This document shows positions 1,620 through 17,206 of a stretch of 17,206 bases of DNA, piece by piece; position 1 is the first letter of the stretch, and each line of letters opens with the position of its first letter. The position numbers and the translations under genes were made by a program. The stretch spans positions 1-17,206 of the forward strand of contig CAMPKM010000017.1 in assembly GCA_946887155.1 (NCBI GenBank). The letters run 5' to 3'. Source of the stretch: an uncultured Gemmatimonadota bacterium. GTDB lineage: Bacteria > Gemmatimonadota > Gemmatimonadetes > Gemmatimonadales > Gemmatimonadaceae. The notes beneath the pieces were generated by a model that had not been told where the DNA came from, did no database searches, and saw only the letters and a list, made by a program, of their open reading frames with translations.

Positions 1620-3686
1620 ATGAAGGTTCTCCGTTTCCCGATAGCCGTCGTAGTCCTTTCGCTGGGTTTTTCCGGAGCGATCCCGGCCCAGGGCACGACG
1701 CAACGCGGCGACACCGTCCAGCCCTGGCAGATCATCAAGCCGCCGCAGTCATCGATCGTCCTGGCGCGCGACGGCTCGTTCATCGGCGAAGTCGGCGAAG
1801 AATTCCGGACCAGCGTCCCATTCGCCTCTCTTCCGAGGTACGTCCCGCAGGCGTTCGTCGCCATCGAAGACCAGCGATTCTACCAGCATGACGGCGTCGA
1901 CCTCGTCGGCATTGCCGGCGCGATCAAGGATGCCATCCGTGGCGACCCGCGCGGCGCGAGCACGATCACCCAGCAACTGGTCGGCAACATGCACCCGACC
2001 ATCATCGACCGGTCGGACGTCAGCCTGGGGCGCAAGCTCCGCGAGCAGAACGCGGCGCGGGAGATGGAACGGCACTACTCCAAGGAGCAGATCCTCGAGG
2101 CGTACCTCAACCAGATCCACTTCGGGCATCGCTGGTACGGCATCGAGGCCGCCGCGCGTCACTATTTCGGGAAGTCCGCGGCGAGGCTGAGCCTCTCCGA
2201 AGCGGCGATGATGGCGGCCGTCATCAACGGTCCGGCGCTCTTCGATCCGATCAATCGGCCGGAACGGGCCAAAGAGCGTCGCGACCTCGTGCTCTCGGTC
2301 ATGGCCGACCAGGGTTTCATCACGACTGATGAGGCGGCGGCCGCGAAGGCGGAACCGATCGAGGTCGCGCCTAACGCCGGATACAGCGCGCCGTCGCCGT
2401 GGTTCGTCGACGTGGTGCGCGTCCAGGCCGAGCGCGCCGGTATCCCTGTCCGGGACGGCGGGTACCGGATCCGCACGACGCTCGACCCGGCGCTCCAGCG
2501 AGCGGCCACCACCGCGCTCGTCGATGGCCTGAACGAAATCGAGCAGCGCCCCGGATACGCGCACCCCATCTGGGCGAACCGGCGACCGTCTTCGTCCCGT
2601 AGCGGGCGCAACGCTCGACAGCAGTCCAATCCCGCCGACTACCTGCAGGGTGCGGTCGTGGCGTTGGATCCGTTCACGGGCGATGTGCGTGCGCTCGTTG
2701 GCGGCCGGGATTACGCCGCCGCACCGTTCAATCGCGCGATCGACGCCAAGCGACAGCCCGGGTCAGCGTTCAAGGTATTCGTCTACGCATCCGCGGTCGC
2801 CGACAGCATGCTGCCGAGCGCGATGGTTGCCGACACGGCGCTGGCGATTCCGCAGGCTGGCGGGAGCATGTATCGGCCACAGAATTCCGACGGCGAGTTC
2901 CTGGGCGCGCTCACGATGCGTACGGCGCTGACGCGCTCCAGAAATCCCGTGGCGATCCAGCTCGCTCTGCAAGTAGGCATGGACACGGTCTCGGCGCTGG
3001 CGCACGAGATGGGACTCGACTCCGACATCGCGCCGTATCCATCCAGTGCGATTGGTGCATCGGTCGTCCAGCCGTTGGACCTGGTGGCGGCATATGCCGC
3101 CATCGCCAACCTTGGCGCGCGCGTTGAACCGAGGTTCATAACGAGGATCGAGGATGCGGCCGGCGAGACGGTCTGGCAGAACCCGATGGTCGCGCCACGG
3201 CCCGTGCTCGATCCGGCGGTGGCGTACATCGTCCGCGACATGCTGCGGGACGTCGTGGATCGCGGAACGGCGACGTCCGTGCGCAACGCGGTGCCCGACA
3301 GCATCCTCGTCGCGGGCAAGACCGGCACGACCAATGACAATACCAACGTATGGTTCGTCGGCATGACGCCCGATATCGTCGCCGGTGTCTGGATCGGCTT
3401 CGACCGTCCGAAGACGATTACACCCGGTGCGGCGGGCGGCTCACTGGCGGCGCCGATCTGGGCGCAGATGATCGCGCGTGGGGCAGGGGCGAGCCGAGGC
3501 CTGCTCTGGCGGCCGCCACCGGGCGTCACGTCAGCCGAGCTCGATCGCGTGACGGGTCGCCTCGCTGATCCCCTGTCCCCACCTGAATCACGGTACACCG
3601 AGTACTTTCTAGGCGGCACGGAACCGCTGCCCGTGCGGCTTGATTCCTGGGGAGTACTGCGTGGGCGCAGGTCAGCGATTCGTTAG
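1620..3686 (+). CDS. Class A penicillin-binding protein (PBP1A family transglycosylase/transpeptidase)
   Basis: Bifunctional periplasmic enzyme that polymerises glycan strands from lipid II and crosslinks their peptides. Residue numbers are from ATG 1620. A short hydrophobic N-terminus (MKVLRF then a hydrophobic run to about residue 24) is a signal or anchor. The GT51 domain (about 55-220) has EDQRFYQHDG with catalytic Glu83, GASTITQQ, a RKLREQ motif and KEQILEAYLN. The transpeptidase domain (about 335-620) has SAFK (Ser382, Lys385), SRN (440-442) and KTGT (567-570). The tail, with GVTSAELDRVTGRLADP and a FLGGTEP stretch, is typical of PBP1A. An in-frame GTG at 1608 would add four residues; neither start has a clear Shine-Dalgarno, and ATG was preferred because it places a Lys before the hydrophobic run. 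All catalytic motifs are intact. Its 3' end overlaps the next gene. Confidence 0.95.
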   Translation: MKVLRFPIAVVVLSLGFSGAIPAQGTTQRGDTVQPWQIIKPPQSSIVLARDGSFIGEVGEEFRTSVPFASLPRYVPQAFVAIEDQRFYQHDGVDLVGIAGAIKDAIRGDPRGASTITQQLVGNMHPTIIDRSDVSLGRKLREQNAAREMERHYSKEQILEAYLNQIHFGHRWYGIEAAARHYFGKSAARLSLSEAAMMAAVINGPALFDPINRPERAKERRDLVLSVMADQGFITTDEAAAAKAEPIEVAPNAGYSAPSPWFVDVVRVQAERAGIPVRDGGYRIRTTLDPALQRAATTALVDGLNEIEQRPGYAHPIWANRRPSSSRSGRNARQQSNPADYLQGAVVALDPFTGDVRALVGGRDYAAAPFNRAIDAKRQPGSAFKVFVYASAVADSMLPSAMVADTALAIPQAGGSMYRPQNSDGEFLGALTMRTALTRSRNPVAIQLALQVGMDTVSALAHEMGLDSDIAPYPSSAIGASVVQPLDLVAAYAAIANLGARVEPRFITRIEDAAGETVWQNPMVAPRPVLDPAVAYIVRDMLRDVVDRGTATSVRNAVPDSILVAGKTGTTNDNTNVWFVGMTPDIVAGVWIGFDRPKTITPGAAGGSLAAPIWAQMIARGAGASRGLLWRPPPGVTSAELDRVTGRLADPLSPPESRYTEYFLGGTEPLPVRLDSWGVLRGRRSAIR
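3649..3654 (+). promoter_or_regulatory. Shine-Dalgarno for the lipoprotein gene
   Basis: GGGGAG lies six bases before GTG 3661, inside the end of the PBP gene. It favours GTG 3661 over the in-frame TTG at 3640, and GTG 3661 also gives a normal-length lipoprotein signal peptide. Confidence 0.7.
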
Positions 3687-5184
3687 GTCTGGCCTGGCGG
3701 TGCTCGTCCGCCTGGCGCCCGCGATCGGCCTGCTGGCCTGCCGTGATGAGCCGACGAGTGCGACGGCGCCCGTGGTCATCGAGCCATCGACATCGACCAA
3801 TCCCGATTTCACCGTTGGCACGACGGTGACGACCGCACCGACGTTCGTCGTGCGGAACTTTCGTGGTGAAGCACTCGCCAACATCCCCGTCACGATCACG
3901 GTCACGCGGGGCAACGGCACGATCGCCAACGCCCCGGTTCGGACGGCGGAGGGCGCGACACCGGTGGGTGCGTGGACGCTGGACACCATTGCCGGTGTCA
4001 ACGAACTCACCATCGTTGCCGGTTCGGCGCCACCGGCTCGCATAACGCTGACTGGTGTCGCCGACGTACCGGCCACGCTGACGACGGGTACGAATCCCCT
4101 GGACGGTCTCGCCGGTGATTTTCTCAGCGGCGCGTTCATGCTGCGCGTCCTCGACCGCTACGGCAATCCGGTAAGCGGTATCGGCATCGACCTGTCGGTC
4201 GCGAAAGGAGGCGGTGAGGTCGCACCGGCATCGACCATCACTGACGACAACGGAGTCGCGGCAGGCATCTCCTGGCGACTGGGCCGGTTCGGCGGATCGC
4301 AACAGCTGATCGCCACCGCCGGTTCGCTGCGCGCCGAAATTGCCGCCCGGATCCGCTCCGAATTTTCTCCCGAAATCCGGTTCGTGGGACCGGTGGTCAA
4401 TCCACAAGTGCAGGCCGCTTTCGCCGCCGCCGTCGATCGCCTCCAGGCGAGTATCGTCGGTGACGTCAGCAACGTCCCCGTGCTGAATTTCGATGTCTCG
4501 CGTTGCGGCATTCAGGGTGTGGGTGCCGTCAACGAAACCGTCGACGACCTGATCGTCTTCGCGATGGTCGTTCCCATCGATGGCGTCGGAAAAGTCCTGG
4601 CGTCAGCCGGCCCGTGTATCCTGCGCACGCAAAGCGGCTTCCCGCTGATTGGCCTCATGCGGTTCGACTCGGACGACATCGAGAGCCTGTCGTCGAACGG
4701 CAGGCTCCCTTCGGTGGTGCTCCACGAATTGCTTCACGTCATCGGCATCGGGACGCTCTGGCGGTCGCAGGAGAGGCTCGCCGGCATCGGGACGTCCGAT
4801 CCTCGCTTTGTCGGTCCGGAGGCGGCGTCGCAATGCCTGACTGCCGGCGGGTTCAGCGGCTGCAGCGATGGACGTGTGCCGGCGGAAAACACCGGCGGGC
4901 CGGGCACGGCGGAAGTCCACTGGCGTGAAGCCACATTCGATCGCGAGGTCATGACGGGCTTCGTCGAATCGGACAATGTCATGCCCCTGTCGGCGATTTC
5001 GATTGCCTCGCTCGCCGACCTGGGTTACACGGTGAACCTGCTGGCGTCCGACCCGTTTCAGGTGCCGGTGCCGTCAGCTGTTTCGCCACGTATATCGCCC
5101 CAGCCCGTCGCCCCCTGGGAAACGGTACACATCCCGCTCTTCGAATTGTCTCCCGCCGGGACGTTGCGACGTATCACGCGTTGA
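3661..5184 (+). CDS. Lipoprotein with Ig-like repeats and a leishmanolysin-like zinc metallopeptidase domain
   Basis: Predicted secreted lipid-anchored protease of 507 residues. The N-terminus is a lipoprotein signal: charged start, hydrophobic stretch, then lipobox LLAC with Cys27. Two beta-rich Ig-like segments follow (about 49-130 and 139-230), each with the pattern of bacterial adhesin-type repeats such as DRYGNPVSGIGIDL. The catalytic part (about 233-450) has HELLHVIG (His355, Glu356, His359), a likely third zinc ligand His420 in EVHWREA, and a Met-turn candidate Met431 in EVMTGF. This spacing fits the M8-type metzincins. Several cysteines (SRCG, GPCI, SQC, GCSDG) fit an extracytoplasmic protein with disulfides. 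The gene starts 26 bases before the PBP stop, so the two are probably co-transcribed and translationally coupled. The substrate cannot be told from sequence. Confidence 0.85.
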   Translation: MGAGQRFVRSGLAVLVRLAPAIGLLACRDEPTSATAPVVIEPSTSTNPDFTVGTTVTTAPTFVVRNFRGEALANIPVTITVTRGNGTIANAPVRTAEGATPVGAWTLDTIAGVNELTIVAGSAPPARITLTGVADVPATLTTGTNPLDGLAGDFLSGAFMLRVLDRYGNPVSGIGIDLSVAKGGGEVAPASTITDDNGVAAGISWRLGRFGGSQQLIATAGSLRAEIAARIRSEFSPEIRFVGPVVNPQVQAAFAAAVDRLQASIVGDVSNVPVLNFDVSRCGIQGVGAVNETVDDLIVFAMVVPIDGVGKVLASAGPCILRTQSGFPLIGLMRFDSDDIESLSSNGRLPSVVLHELLHVIGIGTLWRSQERLAGIGTSDPRFVGPEAASQCLTAGGFSGCSDGRVPAENTGGPGTAEVHWREATFDREVMTGFVESDNVMPLSAISIASLADLGYTVNLLASDPFQVPVPSAVSPRISPQPVAPWETVHIPLFELSPAGTLRRITR

Positions 5185-5222
5185 GCTGGGGGCTGTTCCC
5201 AGGCCTGCCGTCTTCCGTCCGC

Positions 5223-6554
5223 CTAACGCGCCCGCTTCTGCACCTCCTCCATGACGCGAAGGAGGTTTCCGCTCCAGAGTTTCGCGATCTGTTCCTCGGT
5301 GTAGCCGCGCTTCACCAGCTCCAGCGTGACGTTGAACGTTTCTTCGGCCCCGTTCCAGCCTTCGACGCCGCCACCCCCGTCAAAGTCGGAGCTGATGCCG
5401 ACGTAGTCGATGCCGATCAGTTTCACGGCGTAGTCGATGTGGTTGACGAAGTCCGCCACGGTCGCGCGAGCAGGCGCCGGATACTGGCGATCGATATCCG
5501 CGAGCCGGTCGTTGAATGCGGCGCGTCGTTCGGGGGGCAGGGAGTCGATCGCCGCCTGGGCCGCACCACGTCCGCCCCGTCCGCCGCCACCACCGCGAGC
5601 CGCGCCGGCTCCCCCGGCCGCACCGCCGCGTCCCGCGCCACGCCCGGCGCCTGCCGTCGGAATGCCGAACTCGGTGTACAGTGCCGCGATGGCCGGCGCG
5701 CGTTCGGCCGGTGCCGGGTCGCACTTCACGTACGAGGCAAACGCGACCACCTGGATCACGCCACGGTTCTTCTTCAACGCCAGGAGCTGTTCGTCATCCA
5801 TGTTGCGCGAGTGGTTGCATAACGCGCGAACGGCGGAATGCGACGCGATGACAGGGGCCTTGCTCAGCTCGAAGGTCTGCATCGAGGACTGCTTCGACGG
5901 GTGCGAGATGTCGATCATCATGCCGACGCGGTTCATCTCGGCAATCGCCTGCCGGCCGAGCGGCGAGAGGCCGTTCCATTTGAAGCCCTGGGCCTCTCCG
6001 GTGTTCGAGTCCGACCATTGCGAGTGCCCGTTGTGCGCCAGGGAGAGGTACCGGCCGCCGCGATCGTAGAACGCCTTGATGTTCTTCAGGTCCTCGCCTA
6101 ACGGGTAGGCATTCTCGATGCCGATCATGGCGACCTTGCGGCCGGATGCCGCGATCCGGCGGACGTCGGCCGGGGTCAACGCGAGCCCGATCTTGTCGGG
6201 CGCGATGGTCTCCGTCAGCCGGTGTATGGCCTCGAACTTCTCGATCGCCTGGTCGTAGGCCCGCTTGTACCCTTCGGGGGTGAAATCCTGCTGTTGACCG
6301 ACGTAGACAACCATGAAGGAGACATCGAGTCCCCCTTCGACCATCTTCGGGATGTTGACTTGCGTCGACAGGCGCTGTGTGTAGTTCCGTTCGGCGGTGA
6401 AGTTGGCCGGACTGATATCGTCGTGCGTATCGAGCGTGATCACCCGGTCGTGGATCGCGCGAGCCCGCGCCAGGACTTCCGGTGGGGTCGCCTGCGCCTG
6501 GACGGCGCTGGAGGCGATCAAACTGGACAGGACCATCAGCGAAAGGCGACGCAC
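5223..6554 (-). CDS. Secreted membrane-dipeptidase-type peptidase (M19)
   Basis: Zinc dipeptidase of the renal dipeptidase family, 443 residues, predicted exported by a signal peptide ending near VQAQA (about residues 1-22). All expected metal ligands are visible: His44 and Asp46 (DTHDDIS), bridging Glu147 (GIENAYP), His218 (DISHPS), His239 (IASHS) and Asp390 (SSDFDGGG). Start is GTG 6554 because GGAGG lies five bases upstream and a signal peptide begins there; the same frame stays open far upstream into the permease gene, but that extension is only its shadow. A Gly/Ala/Arg-rich low-complexity insert at about 303-333, just before the last quarter of the barrel, is unusual. It follows the permease by 125 bases on the same strand. 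Its TAG stop lies inside a CGTTAGGC octamer. Confidence 0.93.
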   Translation of the reverse strand: MRRLSLMVLSSLIASSAVQAQATPPEVLARARAIHDRVITLDTHDDISPANFTAERNYTQRLSTQVNIPKMVEGGLDVSFMVVYVGQQQDFTPEGYKRAYDQAIEKFEAIHRLTETIAPDKIGLALTPADVRRIAASGRKVAMIGIENAYPLGEDLKNIKAFYDRGGRYLSLAHNGHSQWSDSNTGEAQGFKWNGLSPLGRQAIAEMNRVGMMIDISHPSKQSSMQTFELSKAPVIASHSAVRALCNHSRNMDDEQLLALKKNRGVIQVVAFASYVKCDPAPAERAPAIAALYTEFGIPTAGAGRGAGRGGAAGGAGAARGGGGGRGGRGAAQAAIDSLPPERRAAFNDRLADIDRQYPAPARATVADFVNHIDYAVKLIGIDYVGISSDFDGGGGVEGWNGAEETFNVTLELVKRGYTEEQIAKLWSGNLLRVMEEVQKRAR

Positions 6555-6559
6555 AGAAT

Positions 6560-6564
6560 CCTCC
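6560..6564 (-). promoter_or_regulatory. Shine-Dalgarno for the dipeptidase
   Basis: On the minus strand GGAGG is followed by ATTCT and then GTG. This decides the start at 6554, against the long upstream extension of the open frame. Confidence 0.75.
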
Positions 6565-6679
6565 GGGAGCCGGACAGGCAGGATCGGACAGCGGTAGAGG
6601 CTGAATTCTGCACGCTGCGCCTGTTTCTGCAATCCGCTCCTCGCACTCTTTGGCGCGATGGCGAAGACCGGACGCCTGT

Positions 6680-7948
6680 CTACTCGTGCCGGATCGCGTC
6701 GATCGGGCTCAACCTCGCCGCGCGGCGGGCCGGGTAGGTGCCGAATGTAAGGCCCACCACGACCGCTGCGATGGCGGCAACCATCACCGTGCTCCACGAA
6801 ATGGACGCGTAGAGCGCGGGCGCATCCGAGAACGTCCGTATCAGCGCCGTGATCGCATAGGCCCCCGAGACGCCTAACGCCAATCCGATCAGGCTTCCCA
6901 GCGAGCAGATCGTGACCGACTCGGCCAGGAACTGGCGCAGGATGTCCCGGTCGCGGGCTCCCGCTGCCTTCCTGATCCCGATCTCGCGCGTGCGCTCGGT
7001 GACCGACGACAGCAGCACGTTCATGATGCCGATCCCGCCGACCAGCAGGGAAATGCCCGTGATGGCGCCCATGAACAGCTTGAACATCAGGATTCCACGT
7101 GATAGCTGCTCCAGGCGGCGCTCGTTGGTCGAGACGAGATAACGCCGCGCCCATGCGGAGTCGCGTGACGCAAAATACTGCTCGATTCTCTGCTGGAGCG
7201 GCTGCGTCTGCTCCACGCTCGACGCCACCGCGATGATCACCGGCGGCTGGCCAGGCGTCGTCGTCGTCGAGGCAAACCGCAGCGGGGCGAGGACCCGGTA
7301 ATCCGCCTGCGACCGCCGGCGCGACCCGAACGGGACCACCGGCACAGTCTGGGGCTCGAGCACCCCGGTCACCAGCGCCGGCACGCCGCCTAACGATATG
7401 GAGTCGCCGACGAGCGACGCCGCGTTCGAATCCCGCGCCAGCGCCCGGGCGAGGTCCATCGAGATCGCGACCACCCCCGCCGAACCGGAACCTTCTTGTT
7501 CGCTGGGCAGACGGCCCATGGACGCCCTGAGCCGCGAGGAGTCGCCGAGCGCCAGCTCCACCATGACCAGCGCCATTCTCCGGGCATCGCCGGACATGCT
7601 TCTGACCTCGGCGTACGACTCGGCTCGCAACACGACCGATTTCACGCTGGCGAGCGCGTGGATGCCGCGCGCGTCGTCGACGGTGAGTACGGCCGGCGAC
7701 GCGATGGGAAACGACTGGCCGTCGATCACCTCGCGTGTCCGGGCCGCAACGGACACCGACTGCAGGTCCGTCGTCTGCTCGATCTGGCTCCTGACCGAGC
7801 GTTCGAGCCCGTCGCCCACCGAGAGGACCGCCACCAGGGCACTGACGCCGATAATGACGCCGAGTGTCGACAGGATCGTACGGAGCGGATTGGCGCGAAG
7901 TGTTTCGAAGCCTACCGCGATCGACGTGGATATCGCTGCGAAGCGCAT
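6680..7948 (-). CDS. ABC transporter permease, MacB/FtsX type
   Basis: Inner-membrane permease of 422 residues with the MacB topology: one N-terminal helix (about 22-44, after the typical LRANPLRTILSTLG), a large periplasmic domain (about 50-285), then three C-terminal helices (about 289-313, 345-370, 386-404). The conserved FtsX-type loop SVTERTREIGIRKAAGA lies after the second helix, and the end ARRAARLSPIDAIRHE is typical. No ATPase domain is fused and no partner ATPase gene is in the window, so its nucleotide-binding subunit must be elsewhere or the gene is orphaned. Such permeases export peptides, lipoproteins or drugs; the substrate here is unknown. A GGGGTCAGAC inverted repeat ends three bases before its ATG and leaves no Shine-Dalgarno. 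Confidence 0.92.
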   Translation of the reverse strand: MRFAAISTSIAVGFETLRANPLRTILSTLGVIIGVSALVAVLSVGDGLERSVRSQIEQTTDLQSVSVAARTREVIDGQSFPIASPAVLTVDDARGIHALASVKSVVLRAESYAEVRSMSGDARRMALVMVELALGDSSRLRASMGRLPSEQEGSGSAGVVAISMDLARALARDSNAASLVGDSISLGGVPALVTGVLEPQTVPVVPFGSRRRSQADYRVLAPLRFASTTTTPGQPPVIIAVASSVEQTQPLQQRIEQYFASRDSAWARRYLVSTNERRLEQLSRGILMFKLFMGAITGISLLVGGIGIMNVLLSSVTERTREIGIRKAAGARDRDILRQFLAESVTICSLGSLIGLALGVSGAYAITALIRTFSDAPALYASISWSTVMVAAIAAVVVGLTFGTYPARRAARLSPIDAIRHE

Positions 7949-7951
7949 GAA

Positions 7952-7996
7952 CGGAAAATGGGGTCAGACCCCATTACGAGCCTGACCCCATTTCCG
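7952..7996. repeat. GGGGTCAG inverted repeat between lon and the permease gene
   Basis: Left arm CGGAAAATGGGGTCAG (7952-7967) pairs with right arm CTGACCCCATTTCCG (7982-7996), with one extra A in the left arm and a 14-base loop that itself holds another ACCCC. It fills most of the 63-base lon to permease gap and could form a hairpin in the lon transcript. It belongs to the same family as the repeats near 10790 and 15605. Confidence 0.85.
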
Positions 7997-8011: not shown

Positions 8012-10594
8012 TCAGCCTACGCCCGCCGGGATTTGCTCGTCCACCGGCTCCTGGTCGCGCGCCATTTCATCGGTCATGGCGATGCGCAGGACCTCCGGCA
8101 GCGTCGACACCGGGTGGAACTTGAGCTGCGACCGCACTTCCTCAGGCACGTCTTCCAGGTCGGCCTCATTCTCGGCTGGCAGGATGATGTGCTTGATCCC
8201 GGCGCGGTGAGCGCCCAGCACTTTCTCCTTGAGCCCACCGATCGGCAGCACGCGTCCGCGCAGCGTGATCTCACCGGTCATGGCGACGTCGCGGCGAACC
8301 GGACGTCCCGACATCTCCGAAACCAGGGCGGTAGCGATGGCGATACCCGCCGACGGCCCGTCCTTGGGGATCGCGCCGGCCGGCACGTGGATGTGTGCTT
8401 CCATCGCGCCATCCAGGCGGTAGCCGTGGATGCCGAGCGCGGTCGCGTTGTTCGTGGCGTAGGTGAGCGCCGCGCGGGCGCTCTCCTTCATGACTTCACC
8501 GAGCTGGCCGGTGAGGATGAGCGACATCGGCGCGGCCTGCATGCGCGACGGTGTCTCGCCGTCTTCGGTGGACGCCGGCGCCTCGCGGCGGCGGATCGAG
8601 GCTTCGACGAACATGATGTCGCCGCCCACAGGCGTGTAGTACATGCCCGTGGCGATGCCGACCTCGTTCTGCTCGGCTGCATGTTCCGGATGGACTTTCG
8701 GCCTGCCTAACAACTCACGCACCTCGGCGGCATCGATGCGGCGATCGCTCAGAATGCCGTCGCTGCCGGTGGCGACACGGCGGGCCACTTTCCGGCAGAC
8801 CGCGCCAACCTGACGTTCGAGCTGGCGCACACCGCTTTCGCGCGTGTAGTTCGCGACGATGCTCGCCACGGCATCGTCGGTGAACGAGATGCCCTTGTCG
8901 CCGAGGCCATTCTCCTCGAGCTGGCGCGGGATCAGGTACTTCTTGGCTATTTCCGCCTTCTCGCGTTCGGTATAGCCCGAGAAGTCGACCATCTCCATCC
9001 GGTCGAGCAGCGGGCCCGGGATGTTCTGGACGAAGTTCGCCGTCGCGATGAACAGGACCTCGCTCAGGTCGAACGGGATGCCGAGGTAGTGATCGGTGAA
9101 CGAGTCGTTCTGCGCCGGGTCGAGCACCTCGAGCAGCGCCGCCGAGGGATCGCCCTGGAACGACACCCCGAGCTTGTCGACTTCGTCGAGCAGGAAGACC
9201 GGGTTCTTGGTGCCGGCCTGCTTCATGCCCTGGATGATGCGGCCCGGCATGGCGCCGACGTACGTGCGCCGGTGCCCGCGGATGTCCGCCTCGTCGCGGG
9301 CGCCGCCCAGTGAGACACGGACATACTCGCGGCCTAACGAGCGGGCGATCGACTTGGCGATCGACGTCTTGCCGACGCCGGGCGGACCGATGAAGAGCAG
9401 GATCGGACCCTTGGCCATCGCGCGGGCCTTCGCCTCGCGCGCGTCGGTGATCGGGCGGTCGTCGTCGCCGTTGCCGCCGAGTGCCGGCGTCGCATCATCC
9501 TTGGGTGCCTTCACCTTGAAGGCCGGGAATTCGCCGGTTTTTTCGACCTCTTCGGCCAGTTGGCGGGCGCGAAGCTGCCGGACCGCGAGGTACTCCAGGA
9601 TGCGGTCCTTCACGTCCTGCAGGCCGTAGTGGTCCTCCTCCATGATCTCCGACGCGCGATTCAGGTCGAGCATGTCGTCGGACCGGGTGCTCCACGGGAG
9701 CTCGGCGATCCACTCGAGGTAGGTGCGGATCACCTGCGCTTCCATCGATTCTCGCCCGGTGCGCTCCAGGCGGCCAAGTTCGCGCTCGACTTCCACCCGC
9801 GCTTCCTTGGGCAGGTCGAGCTTCGTCAGCTTGTCGCGCAGTTCCTCGACTTCGCGCGACTGGTCGTCGTCGCCAAGCTCCTTCTGGATCGCCTTCATCT
9901 GCTCGCGCAGGAACATTTCGCGCTGGCGTTCGCCCAGTTCCTCCTGGACCTGCGACTTGATTTCTTCCTGCGCCTCGAGCATCCCGATCTGGCGCTGGAC
10001 GTGGACCAGCACGCGGCGCAGGCGTTCCTCGACGCTCAGCGTCTCGAGCAGTCCCTGTTTCTCGGGAACGGTCAGCTCGATGTAGCCGGCGACGAGATCG
10101 GCGAAGCGGCCTGGCTCCTCGACGGCGTCGAGCACCTGATGCACGACTTCCTCGGGCAAGCCACGCTTTTCGCCAAGTTCGCCGGCGCGCTCGCGGGTTT
10201 CCTTGTGGAGGGCTTCGAACGCCGCATCCGACTCGGAGAGCGGCGCCATCTCTTCGGTCGGCATAACGACAGCGCTGAGGAAGCCGTCGCCCTGGGTGTA
10301 CTGCAGGGATGTGGCGCGCTGTTCGCCCTGGAGGAGCAGCTGGACGCCACCGAGTCCGCGCTGGATCTGTCCGATCCTGGCGATGACACCCATGGAATAC
10401 AGGATTTCCGGCGCAGGTTCGTCGGTGTTGTCACGCTGTGCGACGGCGAACACGAGCCGGTCGCCCTTGAGCGCCGATTCAATGGCGCGCAGGGTTCCAG
10501 GGCGCCCCGCCGCAATGGGCGCCGTCAGGCCAGGGAAGATCACCGTCCCCCGAAGCGGGAGAACCGGCAGCGTCTGTCGCTCTGCCAAGGTCAT
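8012..10594 (-). CDS. lon: ATP-dependent protease Lon (LonA type)
   Basis: Cytoplasmic AAA+ serine protease that unfolds and degrades damaged and regulatory proteins. From ATG 10594 it has 860 residues, somewhat longer than the usual 780-820. The N-terminal substrate-binding domain begins at [14 protein letters not shown]; a charged helical region (about 210-300) follows. The AAA+ domain has Walker A GPPGVGKT (403-410) and Walker B FLLDEVDK. The protease domain has the dyad Ser748 (PKDGPSAG) and Lys791 (GGLKEKVLG). An insert rich in Gly, Asp and charged residues just before Walker A (about 368-395), and one in the protease domain near [14 protein letters not shown], account for part of the extra length. 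The frame extends 20 codons upstream to GTG 10654, but the residues do not look Lon-like. GAGG stands only two bases before the ATG, a poor spacing. Confidence 0.97.
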
Positions 10595-10955: not shown

Positions 10956-12953
10956 ATGAGTGCTACACTACTCGACTGCCCCGTCGTCGTACCCAGCCAG
11001 GCCCACCGCGTGCCCGAGCCAGTCGGTCCTCAGTCAGACCCAGACCTTCGAGCACACGTCGAGCGAGTTCTCGCTGCGACCTACGAACTCGACCGCGAAA
11101 TCGGCCGCGGCGGGATGGGTATCGTCTACAAGGCCAAGGATCGGCGCCTCAAGCGGACCGTCGCCATCAAGGTGCTCCCGCCGGAACTGGCCTTTCGCGC
11201 CGAAATCCGTACGCGATTCCTCCGTGAGGCTGAGACCGCCGCCCAGCTGAGCCACCCGAACATCGTGCCGATCTACAGCGTCGATGAACGGGACGGCATC
11301 GTCTATTTCGTGATGGCGCTGGTCGAGGGGGAAAACCTGGCCGTCCGGATTCACGCGAACGGCGCGCTGTCGCCGGGTGAAGCGCGCCGCATCCTGCTCG
11401 AAGTGGCGCACGCGCTGGCGTATGCACACGAGCGGGGCGTGGTCCATCGCGACATCAAGCCGGACAACATCCTGATCCAGAATGGCGACGGCCGCGTGCT
11501 GGTGACGGATTTCGGTATCGCCCGGGCCGTCACGGAAGGCGCCGATTCGCGGCTGACGGCCACCGGGATGGCGATCGGCACACCGGCCTACATGTCGCCC
11601 GAGCAATCGACCGGTGACCGCCAGATCGACGGACGCAGCGACCTCTATTCGTTAGGCGTCGTCGGCTACCAGATGCTGGTGGGCGACCCGCCCTTCGAGG
11701 CGCCGAGCACGCCGGCCCTCCTCGTGAAGCACCTGTCGGAACGCCCGGAACCGATCATCCAGCGACGCCGCGGCGTGCCGCCGGACCTGGAACGCGCGGT
11801 CATGCTGCTCCTGGAAAAGGATCCGGACCTCCGTTTCCCGAGCGCGGACGCCCTGGCCGCGGCGCTCGAAAGCGGAAACGTTCCCGCGCTGCCTGACGCG
11901 CCCTCGGCCCCGCCGGTCCGGGCCTCGCGCGCGACGCGTGCACCGGCTCCGGCAGTGGACGATGACTGGGCCCCCGCGGGCGTGTCGCGCGAAGAGCAGT
12001 CGCGCTGGTACGCGCCCCCGGTGGTCAAATTCCGCAAGAAGCTCGGGCCGTACGTGATCGTGAACTCCGTCATGATCGTGTCGTCGATCCTCTTCGGCGT
12101 GAGCCTGGTCTTCTTCACGGCCATCTGGAGCGTGTACATGGCGTTCCAGTACGCCAAGCTGTGGAGCGAGGATTACGACTGGCACGACGTGCTGCGCGAG
12201 CCGCGGGACCGGATGTTCTTCGACGTCGTCGCCGAATGGTTCGACAACGTCCGCGCGCTCTGGGACAAGAACAAGGCCGCCGAGGTCCGGGCGCGAAGCC
12301 AGATGAAGGGCGTGCGCACGCCGAGCGGTACGTATTCCTCCATGGCGGCCGCGCCCAGGCAGGGCCGGCTCGCCGCGCCTGACGCGGTGCGGCGTGCGGG
12401 ATTGCAGAGTCCTTCGGTGCGCAAGGCATCCAGTCACCGCGATGACATCCTTCGTTGGGTGGCGACATTGTCCAAGCGCGACAAGCAGGTCGCGGCGGAC
12501 GTGCCCGCCACCGCCAACGCGTTGTACGAGAACATCGAATCCCTGGCCGCGAATGTCGCCACCCTCGACCGCGAGGTCTCGCCGGGTGCAGCGGCCGAAG
12601 TCGAGTCGGAAATCACCGCGCTCGAGGCACAGGCAAATCCGTTCGATCAGCGCGCGAGTGAGGAGCGGGTGCGTCGCCTTGCTCACCTCAAGCGACAGCG
12701 CCGCGCAGTCGCCGATCTCGAGTCGCGCCGGGAACGTTCCCGCGAACGGCTCGAAAGTTGCCTCCTGGCGCTGGAGAACATGCGTCTCGACGTGATCAAG
12801 CTGAAAGCCGGCAGCCAGACGTTGCAGCAGATCACGCTCGTTGCCGAACGCGCCCGCGAACTGGCCAGCGAAGTGGACAACGCGATGTACGTCGCCGACG
12901 AAATGTCGAAGCTGAAGGGCGGAAACCGCGAGTCCGGGATCGGGCGCCGCTGA
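10956..12953 (+). CDS. Membrane serine/threonine protein kinase with C-terminal helical domain (first of a tandem pair)
   Basis: Hanks-type kinase of 665 residues. The kinase domain (about 44-305) has the loop GRGGMG (50-55), Lys72 (VAIK), catalytic HRDIKPDN (164-171, Asp166), DFG (185-187) and GTPAYMSPEQ, so it should be active. A Pro/Ala-rich linker follows (about 310-350). A hydrophobic stretch at about 365-400 looks like two closely spaced membrane helices. The last part (about 495-655) is charged and helical, likely coiled coil, containing RRLAHLKRQRRAVADL and LALENMRLDVIKL. This tail matches that of the next gene. Unlike most PknB proteins there are no extracellular PASTA domains; both termini are probably cytoplasmic. 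Start ATG 10956 has no Shine-Dalgarno; an in-frame GTG near 11010 is an alternative. The target is unknown. Confidence 0.92.
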   Translation: MSATLLDCPVVVPSQAHRVPEPVGPQSDPDLRAHVERVLAATYELDREIGRGGMGIVYKAKDRRLKRTVAIKVLPPELAFRAEIRTRFLREAETAAQLSHPNIVPIYSVDERDGIVYFVMALVEGENLAVRIHANGALSPGEARRILLEVAHALAYAHERGVVHRDIKPDNILIQNGDGRVLVTDFGIARAVTEGADSRLTATGMAIGTPAYMSPEQSTGDRQIDGRSDLYSLGVVGYQMLVGDPPFEAPSTPALLVKHLSERPEPIIQRRRGVPPDLERAVMLLLEKDPDLRFPSADALAAALESGNVPALPDAPSAPPVRASRATRAPAPAVDDDWAPAGVSREEQSRWYAPPVVKFRKKLGPYVIVNSVMIVSSILFGVSLVFFTAIWSVYMAFQYAKLWSEDYDWHDVLREPRDRMFFDVVAEWFDNVRALWDKNKAAEVRARSQMKGVRTPSGTYSSMAAAPRQGRLAAPDAVRRAGLQSPSVRKASSHRDDILRWVATLSKRDKQVAADVPATANALYENIESLAANVATLDREVSPGAAAEVESEITALEAQANPFDQRASEERVRRLAHLKRQRRAVADLESRRERSRERLESCLLALENMRLDVIKLKAGSQTLQQITLVAERARELASEVDNAMYVADEMSKLKGGNRESGIGRR

Positions 12954-12969
12954 GGCCCGGCCAGTCCCG

Positions 12970-14982
12970 ATGAGCGACACCCTTCGCGCCCGCGCCGTCA
13001 CCGCCTTTGGTGAAGGGTACGAAATCGACGCCGAGGTCGGTCGAGGCGGGATGGGCGTCGTCTACCGATGCCGCGACGTCAAGCTGCGCCGCTTCGTGGC
13101 CATCAAGGTGCTGCCGCCGGACCTGGCATACCGAGACGAGGTCCGGACGCGATTCCTCCGCGAGGCGGAAACGGCTGCGCAGCTCAACCATCCGAACATC
13201 GTCCCGATTTATTCGGTCGACGACCGCGATGGCCTGGTCTGGTTCGTCATGGGACTCGTCGACGGCGAAAGCCTGGCCGCGCGTCTCTCCCGCGAGCCTC
13301 AACCCCCCTACGCGGAAGTGCGACGAATCCTGCGCGAGGTTGCCGACGCGCTCGCCTATGCGCATGCGCGCGGCATCATCCACCGGGACATCAAGCCGGA
13401 CAACATCCTCATCGACCGCCTGACGAATCGGCCGATCGTCACCGACTTCGGAATTGCCCGGGCCATCGAAGGCGATTCGAGACTCACGGTCACGGGCACC
13501 GCCGTCGGCACGCCGGCGTACATGTCCCCCGAGCAGGCGATGGGTGAAGGCGAGATCGACGGGCGCAGCGACCTGTATTCGCTGGCGTGTGTCGGCTACC
13601 AGATGCTGGCCGGCGAGCTCCCGTTCAAGGCAACGAACACGCCCGCCATGCTGATGAAACACCTGAGCGATCCGCTGCGACCGCTCAGCACGGTGCGACC
13701 AGGCGTTCCTCAGAAATTCGCGGCGCTGATCGAACGGACACTGGCGAAAAAGCCGCACCAGCGCTGGCGTGATGCCTCCGAGTTCCGCGATGCACTCGAT
13801 GCCTTGTCGCTCGACGATCTGTCGGAAAGGGCGCCGGGCGGAAGGCGCAATGCGTCGACGATCTCGCCGGGAGAAGTTCACGCATCCGCCGCGTGGAAAC
13901 GTCCGGCCGTGCCGGCGCCACCACCGCTGCCTCGGCCACTGCGCCCGCCCCTGCCTGACGAGGCACCCGTCAGGCTCCCCCGCCTGTCGTCGCCACGGGA
14001 TCGCGCGGAGGCGCCTCGCGACCGGCATCTCCCCGCACTGGCCAGAAGAAGTGCCCCGGAAGATCCGCACGGCGACCGCCCTCCGGTGCCGTCATTCATG
14101 CCGGAGTCGTGGCAGGACGCGCGTCGCGAATGGGGTCGCGAAGCGCCAGTGGGCATATCTTCGCGCGTCAACCGGATCAGGGAATTCCGGCGCGCACTCG
14201 CGAAGAACGGTGGACTGGTCGCGATGCTGGCCACGATCAACGTGATGTTTTCGCCCGGGTTCCCGTGGGCGTTGTTCCCGACGGCGTTCATTGGATTGGG
14301 GATGTTGAGGCGTGCCGGTTCGCTCTGGGCTGACGGGATCCGGATGAACGAGGTGTTCGGACCGCAGGCCGCGAAGCAGCTGGCGAGCGGTGGCAGCGCC
14401 GAACCGAGAACCGGTCGGCCACCTTCGGCGCACGAGCTCGCGCGCCAGCTGGCGCCCGCCGACGTCCTCGCCGGTCCGTACGGCGAACACGTGCGCCGCG
14501 CGGCCATGGATCGCGCCGCCGCGCAGGACGCCCTCGCGAAGCTTGGCCCAGCTGACCGCGAGATGATTCCCGACGTCGGTCCGACGCTCGACGCGCTCGC
14601 CGAACGGGTGTCATCACTGGCCCAGGCGCTGCACGGACTGGAACGCGCCGCGCCGATCGACGCCGTCGCATCGGTAGACGCGTCACTCACCGAGGCCCGG
14701 AACCGGCCCGAATCCGCGGAGCGCGACCGCCGGATCGAGATGCTCGAGCGGCAGCGCGACACAATCAATGACCTGACGAAGCGGCGCGACGGACTCAGGG
14801 AGCAGATCGAGAACGCCAACCTGCTGCTGCAGAGCATGCGGCTGGACTTGCTCGCGCTGGGGTCAGCCGGCGTTCAGTCGGCGATCAACGATTCCACGAG
14901 CGCTACGCAGGAAGCGCGGGCCCTGTCCCGGGACCTGCGCATCGCGCTGGACGCCGCCAGGCAGATCCGGACGGGCGCCTAA
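12970..14982 (+). CDS. Membrane serine/threonine protein kinase with C-terminal helical domain (second of a tandem pair)
   Basis: A 670-residue paralogue of the preceding kinase, 16 bases after its stop and surely in the same operon. The kinase domain (about 17-280) has GRGGMG (24-29), Lys46, HRDIKPDN (138-145, Asp140) and DFG (159-161), all intact. The Pro/Arg-rich linker (about 290-395) is longer than in the first kinase. A hydrophobic stretch at about 414-444 follows VNRIREFRRALAKN and likely crosses the membrane as a hairpin. The helical tail (about 520-670) has RIEMLERQRDTINDLTKRR and LLLQSMRLDLLAL, clearly alignable with the first kinase. The shared architecture suggests a duplication and perhaps heteromeric signalling through the tails (inference). 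Its TAA stop overlaps the TAG stop of the convergent gene. Confidence 0.92.
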   Translation: MSDTLRARAVTAFGEGYEIDAEVGRGGMGVVYRCRDVKLRRFVAIKVLPPDLAYRDEVRTRFLREAETAAQLNHPNIVPIYSVDDRDGLVWFVMGLVDGESLAARLSREPQPPYAEVRRILREVADALAYAHARGIIHRDIKPDNILIDRLTNRPIVTDFGIARAIEGDSRLTVTGTAVGTPAYMSPEQAMGEGEIDGRSDLYSLACVGYQMLAGELPFKATNTPAMLMKHLSDPLRPLSTVRPGVPQKFAALIERTLAKKPHQRWRDASEFRDALDALSLDDLSERAPGGRRNASTISPGEVHASAAWKRPAVPAPPPLPRPLRPPLPDEAPVRLPRLSSPRDRAEAPRDRHLPALARRSAPEDPHGDRPPVPSFMPESWQDARREWGREAPVGISSRVNRIREFRRALAKNGGLVAMLATINVMFSPGFPWALFPTAFIGLGMLRRAGSLWADGIRMNEVFGPQAAKQLASGGSAEPRTGRPPSAHELARQLAPADVLAGPYGEHVRRAAMDRAAAQDALAKLGPADREMIPDVGPTLDALAERVSSLAQALHGLERAAPIDAVASVDASLTEARNRPESAERDRRIEMLERQRDTINDLTKRRDGLREQIENANLLLQSMRLDLLALGSAGVQSAINDSTSATQEARALSRDLRIALDAARQIRTGA

Positions 14983-15503
14983 CGGGGTATCCGGGCAGGC
15001 CGCCAGGCTTCCCCGCCCACGCCGAACCCGACGGCCGCGCCACCGAGCGACCCGACGATCAACCCGACCGGCACGCCACGCATGAAGTCGTTGGCGTCGG
15101 GATTCACCTCGGGCATGTTGCCGAGGCCGAAGAGGACGCCGCCGATCAGCGCACCGAAGATCATCCCGCGCGCCATGGCGCTGCGCACCGTGCGCCCGCT
15201 GCTGACCTCGAGGTGTTCGATCGTCGACAGTCGGATCGTTACCCGGCGGAATTCATCGACCAGCACGGGCCCGGATTCCATGCCTAACACGGTGCGCACT
15301 TCGCCGGTATCGAGCACCATCACCGACGTGTCGAGTGACTTGATCCGCCCCACATAACGGTCGGTCCGGAGTTCGGGCGCGAAGACTCGTACTCTCGTGC
15401 CGACCTCAGGGCCACGGACAGAGTCCACCGCCTGCGCCTGGATGCCCGTGGCCGACATGAGCGTCGTCGCGAGGACCAACGCTGTATTCACCAGATTCTT
15501 CAC
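14979..15503 (-). CDS. Small exported protein of unknown function with glycine-zipper-like helices
   Basis: I do not recognise a family. The 174-residue product begins with a signal peptide (MKNLVNTALVLATTLMSATG, cleavage likely after IQAQA). The middle (about 30-105) is beta-rich, with alternating residues such as GTRVRVFAP and YVGRIKSLDTSVMVLDTG, suggesting a small SH3- or barrel-like domain. The end has two Gly/Ala-rich hydrophobic segments (GMIFGALIGGVLFGLG and GLIVGSLGGAAVGFGVGG), reminiscent of glycine zippers that insert in or lie on a membrane. Start GTG 15503 follows GGAGGT by three bases. It is convergent with the kinase operon and shares four bases with its end. Confidence 0.8.
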   Translation of the reverse strand: MKNLVNTALVLATTLMSATGIQAQAVDSVRGPEVGTRVRVFAPELRTDRYVGRIKSLDTSVMVLDTGEVRTVLGMESGPVLVDEFRRVTIRLSTIEHLEVSSGRTVRSAMARGMIFGALIGGVLFGLGNMPEVNPDANDFMRGVPVGLIVGSLGGAAVGFGVGGEAWRPARIPR

Positions 15504-15506
15504 ACT

Positions 15507-15512
15507 ACCTCC
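15507..15512 (-). promoter_or_regulatory. Shine-Dalgarno for the small exported protein
   Basis: On the minus strand GGAGGT is followed by AGT and the GTG start at 15503. It is one of the strongest ribosome binding sites in the window and supports that start. Confidence 0.7.
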
Positions 15513-15604
15513 TGCCTCGCGCGCTAATGGTCTCAGGTAGAAAAGTGGCTAGTGACTCAAATGATGTCGAGCGTCGGAGCCTCAAGCCCGCGTGCGAGCG
15601 TTCA

Positions 15605-15663
15605 AGTTCGGGGTCAGACCCGGGGTCAGACCCGGGGTCTGACCCCGGGTCTGACCCCGAACT
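15605..15663. repeat. 59-bp near-perfect palindrome built from GGGGTCAGACCC units
   Basis: Arms 15605-15633 and 15635-15663 are exact reverse complements over 29 bases around a single central base at 15634. Each arm holds AGTTC plus two 12-base units GGGGTCAGACCC. It lies in the 273-base region between two divergent genes, 102 bases from the start of the small exported protein. Both strands read as Gly-Ser-Asp-Pro repeats by accident of symmetry. It is related to the repeats at 7952 and 10789. The rest of the region, 15664-15776, shows nothing I can name. Confidence 0.95.
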
Positions 15664-15776
15664 CGATGGTCTAGCGGAGGGTGGGAAAAGAGGTATCCTT
15701 AGCGCCCGAGACGCTGCGTCCTGCAGAGTTGGTCGTAAAACATTGTCTCGACTGTACTTAACCCAATCAAACCGGC

Positions 15777-16910
15777 GTGACGATCCCGCTCTCGCCAGAA
15801 GGCTCGGCCGACGCCACCACGGGGTCCATCGACTCTGCCGCGGTGCAGTTTCCACTCGGCTGGCTCCTGAACAACGCGTCATCTGCGTTACAGTATCGAG
15901 CCATTATAGAGGTAGCTGGGCTGTCTGGCGATCGGGAGGTGTATCGGAAGCTGTCGCTGGCGTTTCCACCGGCGCTCCGGATCGCGATGGCGCAGGGTGG
16001 AGACGGGTCCTGGGGCGGCGCCATGCTTCGCGTTCCCGAAGTGGGCGCCAACCTGACCGACGTCGGAACGATTCCGGCTTACCGTCGCCTGCTGGAGTAC
16101 GGATGGGATCGAGAGTCGCCGCCCCTGATCCGCGCTCGACGAGTTCTCTTCCGACTGCTCGCCGAAGACAATGACGAGGATCAGCTCTACGAATACCGCG
16201 AGGCGGCTGGGGGTGACCCGGACCTGATCCGTCGCTCGCGCGTCATCCTGCGCGAAGCGGCCGCCGCGGCGCTCGCACATGCCGGGTACGAACGGGATCC
16301 GCGACTCCGGGGGGCCGCGCTCAGAATCATGGCGCGCCTGGATTCGTACCTGACGTCACCGTTGGCTGAACGGCCGTGGGTGCGCGTCGGCAACCGCCAG
16401 GTGCTCGCCGCCGAGGCGACGCCGCCTTCGATGCACGTGCTGACGATGGTGGCGCACATGCCACTCTTCCGGAGCGAGAATCACCCGCAGGTCAACAGGC
16501 TGCTGAAGTACATCTCCCAGCCCCTGCCGCGACAGGAAGCGTTCCAGCAGGTCGGTGCGCACATTGTCGAACAGCCACATCTCGTCCTGGGCGATCCACT
16601 TTCCAGCCGAAACGTCGCCGACGCTGACGTACCCTTCGCATTGACCTGGCTCGAGCTGATGGCCCGACTCGGCTTCCTGCGGCGCAATGACTCGTGGTTG
16701 AGCCTTTTCGACCGCTTCCTCGACGATCGCGATCGGGATTTCGTGTGGCACCCGCACCGCGGATCGGCGAAACCAGCAAGCACGAATCCCGACGTGTGGG
16801 CGATGTTTCCGCTCGATGCCGGCGCCGAAGGCGAGGATCGATGGAGTGACGTGACGTTCCGCCTCGGTCTGATCGCCAGGTTGATGGGTCGACCCATCGA
16901 AGTGGTATAG
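15777..16910 (+). CDS. Unrecognised mostly helical protein
   Basis: A 377-residue protein with no signal peptide and no membrane helix, so probably cytoplasmic. I do not recognise the family. It is rich in helix-forming repeats such as IPAYRRLLEYGWDRESPPLI and WLELMARLGFLRRN. A segment QGGDGSWGG near residue 75 resembles the QW-type motif of terpene-cyclase and prenyltransferase toroids, so an alpha/alpha-barrel is conceivable, but no catalytic acid motif such as DXDD is evident; this is a weak guess. Start GTG 15777 has no Shine-Dalgarno and an in-frame GTG a little downstream is possible. A hydrolase gene follows after 16 bases and is probably co-transcribed. It has the only TTA codon I found in the window that is not followed by GG (near 15890). 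Confidence 0.75.
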   Translation: MTIPLSPEGSADATTGSIDSAAVQFPLGWLLNNASSALQYRAIIEVAGLSGDREVYRKLSLAFPPALRIAMAQGGDGSWGGAMLRVPEVGANLTDVGTIPAYRRLLEYGWDRESPPLIRARRVLFRLLAEDNDEDQLYEYREAAGGDPDLIRRSRVILREAAAAALAHAGYERDPRLRGAALRIMARLDSYLTSPLAERPWVRVGNRQVLAAEATPPSMHVLTMVAHMPLFRSENHPQVNRLLKYISQPLPRQEAFQQVGAHIVEQPHLVLGDPLSSRNVADADVPFALTWLELMARLGFLRRNDSWLSLFDRFLDDRDRDFVWHPHRGSAKPASTNPDVWAMFPLDAGAEGEDRWSDVTFRLGLIARLMGRPIEVV

Positions 16911-16916
16911 AGGAGG
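16911..16916 (+). promoter_or_regulatory. Shine-Dalgarno for the alpha/beta hydrolase
   Basis: AGGAGG directly follows the upstream stop codon and stands ten bases before ATG 16927. An out-of-frame ATG at 16920 lies closer but leads to a stop near 16979, so 16927 is the start. Confidence 0.55.
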
Positions 16917-16926
16917 CGGATGGAGG

Positions 16927-17206
16927 ATGGCGGATGTCAGAGTGCAAGCCGCCACGTTGCTCCCGTATCCGGCGGATGATGCCGAGGTCACCGCGCGGGA
17001 GATCATTTCCGGCGGCGAACGCGTCCGGCTGGTCGAGGCGGGCCCGCCGGACGGTGCGGCGATCATGCTGCTGCACGGCTGGGGAGCGTCGGCGTACAAC
17101 TTTCGCGACGTGCTGCCGGCGTTAGGCAGGGCCGGCTACCGGGCGATTGCGCCTGACCTGCGCGGCCACGGGTGGAGCGAAACCCAGTTGCCGCCCGGTG
17201 CGTGGG
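16927..17206 (+). CDS. Alpha/beta hydrolase, N-terminal part only
   Basis: The first 93 residues of an alpha/beta-hydrolase-fold enzyme run off the window. MLLHGWGASAYNF carries the HGxG oxyanion-hole motif (from about residue 50), and RAIAPDLRGHGWSE is the conserved strand 4 and loop seen in epoxide hydrolases, haloalkane dehalogenases and esterases. The nucleophile elbow and the rest of the triad lie beyond the window, so the reaction cannot be assigned. No signal peptide is present. It sits 16 bases after the unrecognised helical protein, probably in one transcript. Confidence 0.9.
   Translation, partial: MADVRVQAATLLPYPADDAEVTAREIISGGERVRLVEAGPPDGAAIMLLHGWGASAYNFRDVLPALGRAGYRAIAPDLRGHGWSETQLPPGAW

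What the first reader, a model, noticed from the sequence alone, without database searches (positions are those of the whole stretch)
2369..17127. Enriched octamer GCCTAACG / CGTTAGGC, coinciding with rare TTA codons
Exact copies of GCCTAACG on either strand at 2369, 5221, 6096, 6872, 7388, 9332, 11650, 14977 and 17120, plus GCCTAACA at 8705 and 15282 and ACCTAAC variants at 853 and 3682. At roughly two-thirds GC, a rough expectation is under one copy in 17 kb counting both strands. In coding sequence it usually reads TTA-GGC (Leu-Gly) in the sense direction; of about ten in-frame TTA codons I found by eye, nine are followed by GG. At 2369 it instead reads Pro-Asn, so a dicodon preference alone does not explain it. 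Candidates are an uptake sequence, a chromosome-orientation or repair motif, or a methylation target.
Basis: partly seen in the sequence, partly recalled or inferred. Interest (0 to 1): 0.7.

Follow-up and report, generated by a model that had tools for sequence, protein, structure and literature searches.

The report
Genome-wide uptake-signal-like word in Gemmatimonadota
A seven-to-eight-letter DNA word is scattered hundreds to thousands of times through the genomes of certain soil and water bacteria, tends to be kept in place by evolution, and goes with a competence gene beside the DNA-import channel, so it is probably a 'take up DNA of my own kind' label that appears to be unreported in this phylum.

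Summary
The octamer is real. GCCTAACG occurs 9 times in the window against about 0.2 expected. The nearest relative held, a Gemmatimonadaceae MAG, has 858 copies. In that family 26 of 179 genomes carry 223-4469 copies and the other 153 carry 1-70. It is a DNA-level signal: all four stop-free reading frames and intergenic DNA are enriched, and synonymous-codon shuffles do not reproduce it. Copies are kept above control words in 11 of 13 genome pairs, show no replication polarity, and are spaced more evenly than chance in some stretches. In Gemmatirosa kalamazoonensis (4469 copies) the published m6A motifs are others. RecC or a strong AddB-like hit was found in only 5 of 26 enriched genomes. Integron integrase does not track the word. 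ComFB, a late-competence protein, does: it lies beside the DNA-uptake channel gene comEC in 17 of 19 enriched against 5 of 76 background loci (Fisher 1.5e-12; tree-aware p about 3e-4). Best reading: a DNA-uptake-sequence-like self-recognition word evolved independently in Gemmatimonadota. Uptake itself is untested and no receptor is identified.

The parts
2369..2376 (+). GCCTAACG, inside the penicillin-binding-protein gene, read as Pro-Asn
   Evidence: relative L001 reads CCCTGACG
5221..5228 (+). GCCTAACG, overlapping the stop codon of the M19 dipeptidase gene where two genes converge
   Evidence: aligned relative differs
6096..6103 (+). GCCTAACG, inside the M19 dipeptidase gene (Leu-Gly, TTA-GGC, on the coding strand)
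   Evidence: exactly conserved in relative L001
6872..6879 (+). GCCTAACG, in the MacB/FtsX-like permease gene
   Evidence: relative reads GCCGAGCG
7388..7395 (+). GCCTAACG, in the MacB/FtsX-like permease gene
   Evidence: relative reads GCCTAGCC
9332..9339 (+). GCCTAACG, inside the Lon protease gene
   Evidence: relative L001 reads TCCCAGCG
11650..11657 (-). GCCTAACG (CGTTAGGC on +), inside the first Ser/Thr kinase gene
   Evidence: exactly conserved in L001
14977..14984 (+). GCCTAACG, over the stop codons of two converging genes (kinase and small unknown protein)
   Evidence: exactly conserved in L001 although the bases right next to it differ
17120..17127 (-). GCCTAACG (CGTTAGGC on +), near the end of the window, outside called genes
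   Evidence: aligned relative differs
8705..8712 (+). GCCTAACA, 7-mer core with variant last base
15282..15289 (+). GCCTAACA, 7-mer core with variant last base
3681..3688 (-). ACCTAACG, one-mismatch copy; the relative has CGTTAGGC here
4040..4047 (+). GCATAACG, one of four copies (also 685-, 5817+, 10261+) of a variant enriched in this lineage

Best explanation
GCCTAAC(G) is a genome-wide self-recognition word that works like the DNA uptake sequences of Neisseriaceae and Pasteurellaceae. Free DNA carrying it would be bound preferentially by a surface DNA receptor on a type IV pilus-type machine and imported through ComEC, so that kin DNA is favoured. Transformation and selection together would keep the word frequent and sharp. 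Shown here: strong lineage-specific enrichment, DNA-level signal, strand neutrality, conservation in most pairs compared, even spacing in some stretches, widespread ComEC and PilT, and a strong association with ComFB next to comEC. Inferred: that the word biases DNA uptake, and that a receptor reads it.
For: Counts: window 9 against 0.21; relative G001 858 in 4.5 Mb with the reversed word at 208; family 26 of 179 genomes at 223-4469, the other 153 at 1-70. DNA level: Gemmatirosa chromosome samples have 115, 58, 17 and 15 copies in the four possible frames against 4.05, 3.35, 0.1 and 0.95 after synonymous shuffling, and 116 of 129 TTA codons are TTA-GGC. Conservation, counted from both sides: above control words in 11 of 13 pairs, for example 6 of 7 kept at 84% identity against 28%; 8 of 10, 10 of 18 and 4 of 4 in other pairs against 18-23%. 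Spacing: in G021, 11 gaps under 300 bp against 30.6 expected; Gemmatirosa plasmids, 2 gaps under 100 bp against 11.9. No replication polarity: 138+/133- on the Gemmatirosa chromosome samples; intergenic 20:23 in G021. Competence link: ComFB beside comEC in 17 of 19 enriched against 5 of 76 background loci, Fisher 1.5e-12, Pagel-type test LR 21.1, p 3e-4. Gap check: every ComFB-positive locus has at least 301 bp upstream of comEC; of 57 ComFB-negative background loci that could be measured, the median gap is 114 bp and 40 are under 200 bp, too short for ComFB. [quoted passage not shown] PilT in 52 of 52 genomes tested, ComEC in 155 of 179.
Against: No uptake experiment and no receptor. ComEC presence alone does not separate the groups (21 of 26 against 134 of 153, p 0.35), nor does PilT. 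Five enriched genomes gave no PF03772 hit; a relative's ComEC found only a fragment in one of them and nothing in the other four, perhaps because assemblies are incomplete. Gemmatirosa, with 4469 copies, and G021 have no ComFB near comEC. Five background genomes have ComFB without the word. The high-copy '21-kb' Gemmatirosa element, which its authors say may be a phage, carries the word densely, 19 GCCTAAC in 20 kb, where a phage might be expected to lack it. Not all copies persist: 0 of 11 in the pair G156/G157, 0 of 1 in G086/G087, and 4 of 12 between the window and L001. Spacing is not more even than chance in G001 contig C7 or in the Gemmatirosa chromosome samples, and in the latter 8-kb bins are over-dispersed. 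Near-miss words are enriched only at particular positions. The density in spacers is only slightly above that in genes.
Confidence: 0.62

Rival explanations
1. The word is an intracellular protein-binding or recombination site (Chi-like, chromosome-organising or repair-guiding) used on both strands.
For: Conservation, even spacing in some stretches and presence on chromosome and plasmids fit any genome-wide protein site.
Against: No replication polarity. RecC in 3 of 26 enriched against 10 of 26 background genomes; RecC or a strong AddB-like hit (PF12705 with E under 1e-20, a cut-off of mine) in 5 of 26 against 14 of 26, the opposite of what a RecBCD/AddAB Chi predicts. Five more enriched genomes have only weaker PF12705 hits. 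The link to ComFB is unexplained.
Confidence: 0.17
2. It is a methylation target or HIP1-like iterated word maintained through a DNA methyltransferase.
For: Iterated words of this density are known from HIP1 in cyanobacteria (recalled, no call).
Against: It is not a palindrome. In G. kalamazoonensis, with 4469 copies, SMRT sequencing reported three m6A motifs, RGATCY, ATGCAC and CCAGN7TCA, none of them this word (PMC3974934, whole text). 5mC is poorly seen by that method (recalled) and is not excluded.
Confidence: 0.07
3. It is the core of integron attC sites, spread by cassette insertion.
For: The same 7-mer forms attC ends: a site on Gemmatirosa plasmid 1 at L204:892-987 reads GCCTAAC...GTTAGGC. 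Some background genomes show mostly same-strand rows of copies about 0.4-2 kb apart that look like cassette arrays (not examined further).
Against: In the window most copies are single and lie inside housekeeping genes such as Lon and the PBP. Integron integrase is in 17 of 26 enriched and 84 of 153 background genomes, p 0.39. In a 50-kb stretch holding an integron only 2 pairs, 4 of 41 copies, are attC-like by an exact R-box match; attC was scanned in that stretch only.
Confidence: 0.03
4. Codon-pair preference (TTA-GGC) or mutation bias produces the word.
For: Most coding copies read Leu-Gly.
Against: All four stop-free frames and intergenic DNA are enriched; synonymous shuffles give 0.18, 2.6 and 3.0 against observed 6, 75 and 106 coding copies in the window, G001 and Gemmatirosa plasmids.
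Confidence: 0.01

Closest known systems
Neisseriaceae DNA uptake sequence (DUS, GCCGTCTGAA)
   Same: Short, non-palindromic, hundreds to thousands of copies, tied to pilus-dependent competence; the minor pilin ComP is associated with it there (PMC3630211, passages).
   Different: Unrelated sequence and phylum; ComP not sought here; opposite-strand pairs under 100 bp apart are rare (3 among 271 copies of the Gemmatirosa chromosome samples); uptake untested.
Pasteurellaceae uptake signal sequence (USS)
   Same: Most copies inside genes; not palindromes; no orientation bias (PMC1939737, passages: 65% of H. influenzae copies lie in open reading frames).
   Different: Different word and phylum; [quoted passage not shown]
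Cyanobacterial HIP1
   Same: Highly iterated octamer (recalled).
   Different: HIP1 is a palindrome linked to methylation (recalled); this word is not a palindrome and not among the m6A motifs listed for Gemmatirosa.
Integron attC R-box (GTTRRRY, consensus recalled)
   Same: The 7-mer GTTAGGC is identical to an attC end.
   Different: Copies here are mostly single, dispersed and not hairpin pairs.

Membership tests
DNA uptake sequence (DUS/USS) | Short non-palindromic word greatly over-represented genome-wide | tested here: met
   (in relatives; the window's own genome is not held)
DNA uptake sequence (DUS/USS) | Both strands, no replication orientation bias | tested here: met
   GC skew is a weak guide to replichores in these genomes
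DNA uptake sequence (DUS/USS) | Host encodes competence and type IV pilus machinery | tested here: met
   ComEC 155 of 179, 21 of 26 enriched; PilT 52 of 52, 26 of 26 enriched; ComFB beside comEC in 17 of 19 enriched
DNA uptake sequence (DUS/USS) | DNA with the word is taken up preferentially | not testable with these tools
   needs an uptake or transformation assay
DNA uptake sequence (DUS/USS) | Dedicated receptor such as ComP | not tested
   no receptor search was made
DNA uptake sequence (DUS/USS) | Cloud of over-represented near-miss words | tested here: inconclusive
   G001: GCATAACG 30 against 1.5, GCCTGACG 181 against 56; Gemmatirosa: GCCCAACG 80 against 27 and changes of the last base (GCCTAACA 44 against 0.5, GCCTAACC 9 against 1.3, GCCTAACT 6 against 0.4); most other variants near or below background
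HIP1-type word | Palindromic octamer | tested here: not met
   GCCTAACG is not its own reverse complement
Chi site | RecBCD or AddAB present | tested here: not met
   RecC or strong AddB-like hit in 5 of 26 enriched genomes
Chi / KOPS | Strand polarity relative to replication | tested here: not met
Integron attC | Paired inverted R boxes folding into a hairpin | tested here: not met
   2 pairs (4 of 41 copies) in a 50-kb stretch that contains an integron

The most novel reading that the evidence does not exclude
Gemmatimonadota evolved, and many lineages later lost, their own iterated DNA-uptake word, GCCTAAC(G), coupled to a ComFB-associated ComEC importer: an independent system of sequence-labelled DNA uptake, outside the Proteobacteria, which limits transformation to kin in abundant soil bacteria.
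Probability: 0.55. Interest if true: 0.88.

Novelty: new variant of a known kind. Interest (0 to 1): 0.74.

Why it matters
Iterated uptake words are known to me only from two proteobacterial families (recalled). An independent case in a distant phylum would allow a direct test of whether such words arise by selection for kin DNA or by drive from biased uptake, since the family holds several gains or losses. It would also suggest that natural transformation shapes genomes of a major, hard-to-culture soil phylum, and it gives a practical handle: tagging DNA with the word might make these bacteria genetically tractable. The ComFB association also points to what that little-known protein family does.

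Tried and rejected
Alternative words in background genomes: in 19 background stretches of 7-20 kb the best 8-mer score was 9.2, against up to 19.4 in enriched ones; but several enriched stretches scored no higher than 9, so weak dialects could be missed. Terminator or promoter role: density is similar in converging, diverging and tandem spacers (8 in 10.6 kb, 10 in 13.6 kb, 24 in 34.9 kb; 24 copies at gene edges left out) and flat along genes. Longer conserved repeat around the word: beyond a mild preference for C or T before it, and for C after it in Gemmatirosa, flanks show only codon periodicity. Integron and Chi links: see rivals. ComFB in the plasmid collection: no match. Other groups: 50 of the 73 non-Gemmatimonadota loci in hand were sent and 48 genomes searched; highest 128 copies in 5.7 Mb; not a systematic survey. 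Rfam: no hit in the window. Literature: searches for the word in both directions and for Gemmatimonad with uptake sequence or competence terms showed no paper on it. Searches found 0 papers; some searches listed 20 of 163, 20 of 216, 30 of 183 and 15 of 198; open-licence papers only.

Caveats on the controls: the 26 background genomes were picked by hand, mostly for long contigs. For ComFB, 79 of the 134 background genomes with a ComEC hit were fetched (76 usable) and all 21 enriched genomes with one (19 usable); 5 of 100 loci were dropped because the upstream DNA is cut off (L116, L119, L206, L213, L223). The HMM was built mostly from enriched genomes (12 of 13 sequences), which the gap test offsets in part: 57 of 71 negative background loci could be measured. 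The Pagel-type fit used one FastTree gene tree, midpoint root and a short optimiser, so its p value is rough. Genome pairs share genomes and are not independent; its control words match A+T content, not codons. Gene calls are from a simple ORF and GC3 script.

Full report
What is there. The 7-mer core GCCTAAC has 11 copies against 0.48. Pfam names most surrounding genes as ordinary cell genes: a penicillin-binding protein, an M8-like peptidase, an M19 dipeptidase, a MacB/FtsX permease, Lon and two Ser/Thr kinases; 2 of 9 proteins scanned had no hit. No whole genome is held for the window.

Where it comes from. Lon of the window is 91% identical (best segment) to that of a Gemmatimonadaceae MAG (L001, genome G001), and the window is syntenic with it at about 74% nucleotide identity over the aligned bases. 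G001 has 455 and 403 copies on the two strands in 4.5 Mb; the reversed word has 101 and 107. In 386 kb of G001 it is the top 8-mer, 96 against 2.97.

Distribution. In the family of G001, 26 of 179 genomes have 223 to 4469 copies and 153 have 1 to 70, often fewer than the reversed control. In an even draw of 395 genomes of the phylum, six genomes not in that family list exceed 200 copies (361-779) and three more lie at 168-181. None of 48 genomes from other groups exceeds 128. On a comEC tree of 40 rows the enriched label needs seven changes, so it is patchy.

A DNA-level word. In 300 kb of Gemmatirosa plasmid DNA, all 217 CCTAAC are preceded by G and 217 of 218 GCCTAA are followed by C (this stretch includes a published 53-kb tandem duplication, so some copies count twice). 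Coding copies use all four frames without stops. On the Gemmatirosa chromosome samples the frames have 115, 58, 17 and 15 copies against 4.05, 3.35, 0.1 and 0.95 after synonymous shuffling, and 116 of 129 TTA codons are TTA-GGC; in G021 it is 108 of 156, in G001 57 of 84. Intergenic density (0.69-0.76 per kb) is a little above coding density (0.60 per kb), and position within genes is flat.

Conservation and spacing. Between genome pairs, counted from both sides, exact copies are kept at 10 of 10 (95% identity; control words 72%), 6 of 7 (84%; 28%), 6 of 7 (84%; 31%), 8 of 10 (77%; 18%), 4 of 8 (76%; 18%), 2 of 3 (78%; 15%), 10 of 18 (78%; 22%), 2 of 3 (81%; 26%), 4 of 4 (81%; 23%), 6 of 16 (75%; 14%), 4 of 12 for the window pair (77%; 20%), 0 of 11 (71%; 12%) and 0 of 1 (74%; 14%): above control in 11 of 13 pairs. 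A full alignment of the window with L001 keeps 3 of 9 window copies and 3 of 5 copies of L001 exactly, against 16.5% of all 8-mers. Spacing is more even than random in G001 contig C8 and the Gemmatirosa plasmids at 2- and 4-kb bins and in G021 at 2-kb bins only. It is not so in G001 contig C7 or in the Gemmatirosa chromosome samples, where 8-kb bins are over-dispersed.

What it is not. No replication polarity: 138 and 133 copies per strand on the sampled Gemmatirosa chromosome; intergenic copies 20 against 23 by local GC skew in G021. Orientation follows the gene instead: GTTAGGC is in sense in 131 of 202 coding copies in Gemmatirosa, and in G021 in 60 of 71 coding copies in genes on the G-rich strand and 54 of 73 in genes on the C-rich strand, as the Leu-Gly frame predicts. 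RecC was found in 3 of 26 enriched and 10 of 26 background genomes; counting PF12705 hits with E under 1e-20 as AddB-like, 5 of 26 against 14 of 26, p 0.02; weaker PF12705 hits alone occur in five more enriched genomes. A RecBCD/AddAB Chi is therefore unlikely. The Gemmatirosa methylome paper, read whole, lists RGATCY, ATGCAC and CCAGN7TCA as m6A motifs. Integron integrase (E up to 1e-40) is in 17 of 26 enriched and 84 of 153 background genomes, although attC ends share the 7-mer.

The competence link. ComEC (155 of 179) and PilT (52 of 52) are widespread and do not discriminate. Clustering the genes around comEC in 40 genomes showed one small family beside it mainly in enriched genomes, 12 against 1 by the gene caller. 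Pfam names it ComFB (PF10719, E 3e-16). An HMM search of the comEC loci finds ComFB in 17 of 19 evaluable enriched loci and 3 of 19 background loci, and in 2 of 57 further evaluable background loci: 17 of 19 against 5 of 76, Fisher 1.5e-12. A dependent model of the two traits on a comEC tree beats the independent one, LR 21.1, p 3e-4. In all ComFB-positive loci the gap between comEC and the usual upstream gene is at least 301 bp; in 57 measurable ComFB-negative background loci the median is 114 bp. [quoted passage not shown]). The exceptions are Gemmatirosa and G021 (word, no ComFB near comEC) and G023, G025, G097, G108 and G109 (ComFB, no word).

Judgement. The anatomy matches what uptake sequences look like, and the strongest discriminating gene found is a competence gene. 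I therefore think the word labels DNA for uptake, with confidence 0.62. The uptake step and the receptor are inference. ComFB association could also mark active transformation in general, with the word serving recombination of incoming DNA inside the cell.

Literature. No paper in the listings seen from searches of the open-licence library describes this word or an uptake sequence in Gemmatimonadota (numbers listed under Tried and rejected). PMC7305173 (passages) reports, for soil bacteria that include Gemmatimonadetes, that ComEC with adjacent recombination genes goes with the strongest signs of recombination.

Noticed in passing
window 15609-15657: A 12-bp tandem repeat, CGGGGTCAGACC, about four copies; it contributes to the second most enriched word of the window, GGGGTCAG.
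   Followed up: partly
window 1341-1501: A degenerate 17-bp tandem array, about 9.5 copies at 75% match.
   Followed up: no
52 genomes: RecBCD/AddAB-type genes are scarcer in word-rich genomes (5 of 26 against 14 of 26, p 0.02), perhaps linked to how incoming DNA is handled.
   Followed up: partly
L175 (G079:C1): The 21-kb high-copy Gemmatirosa element seems to be a unit of about 15 kb with its first part repeated: four ORFs recur with equal lengths at an offset of 14,997 bp. It carries 19 GCCTAAC in 20 kb; one of ten proteins scanned has a Pfam hit, DUF5906.
   Followed up: partly
L162:10279-10318: Four GCCTAAC copies in a row at 11-bp steps in Gemmatirosa.
   Followed up: no
G183:C43, G254:C2, G269:C5, G345:C14: In word-poor genomes, mostly same-strand rows of GCCTAACG about 0.4-2 kb apart look like integron cassette arrays.
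   Followed up: no
window and G001: Lineage-specific variants: GCATAACG (4 in the window against 0.1; 30 against 1.5 in G001) and GCCTGACG (181 against 56 in G001) are enriched, while Gemmatirosa and the G102, G103 and G105 stretches favour GCCCAACG; possible dialects.
   Followed up: partly
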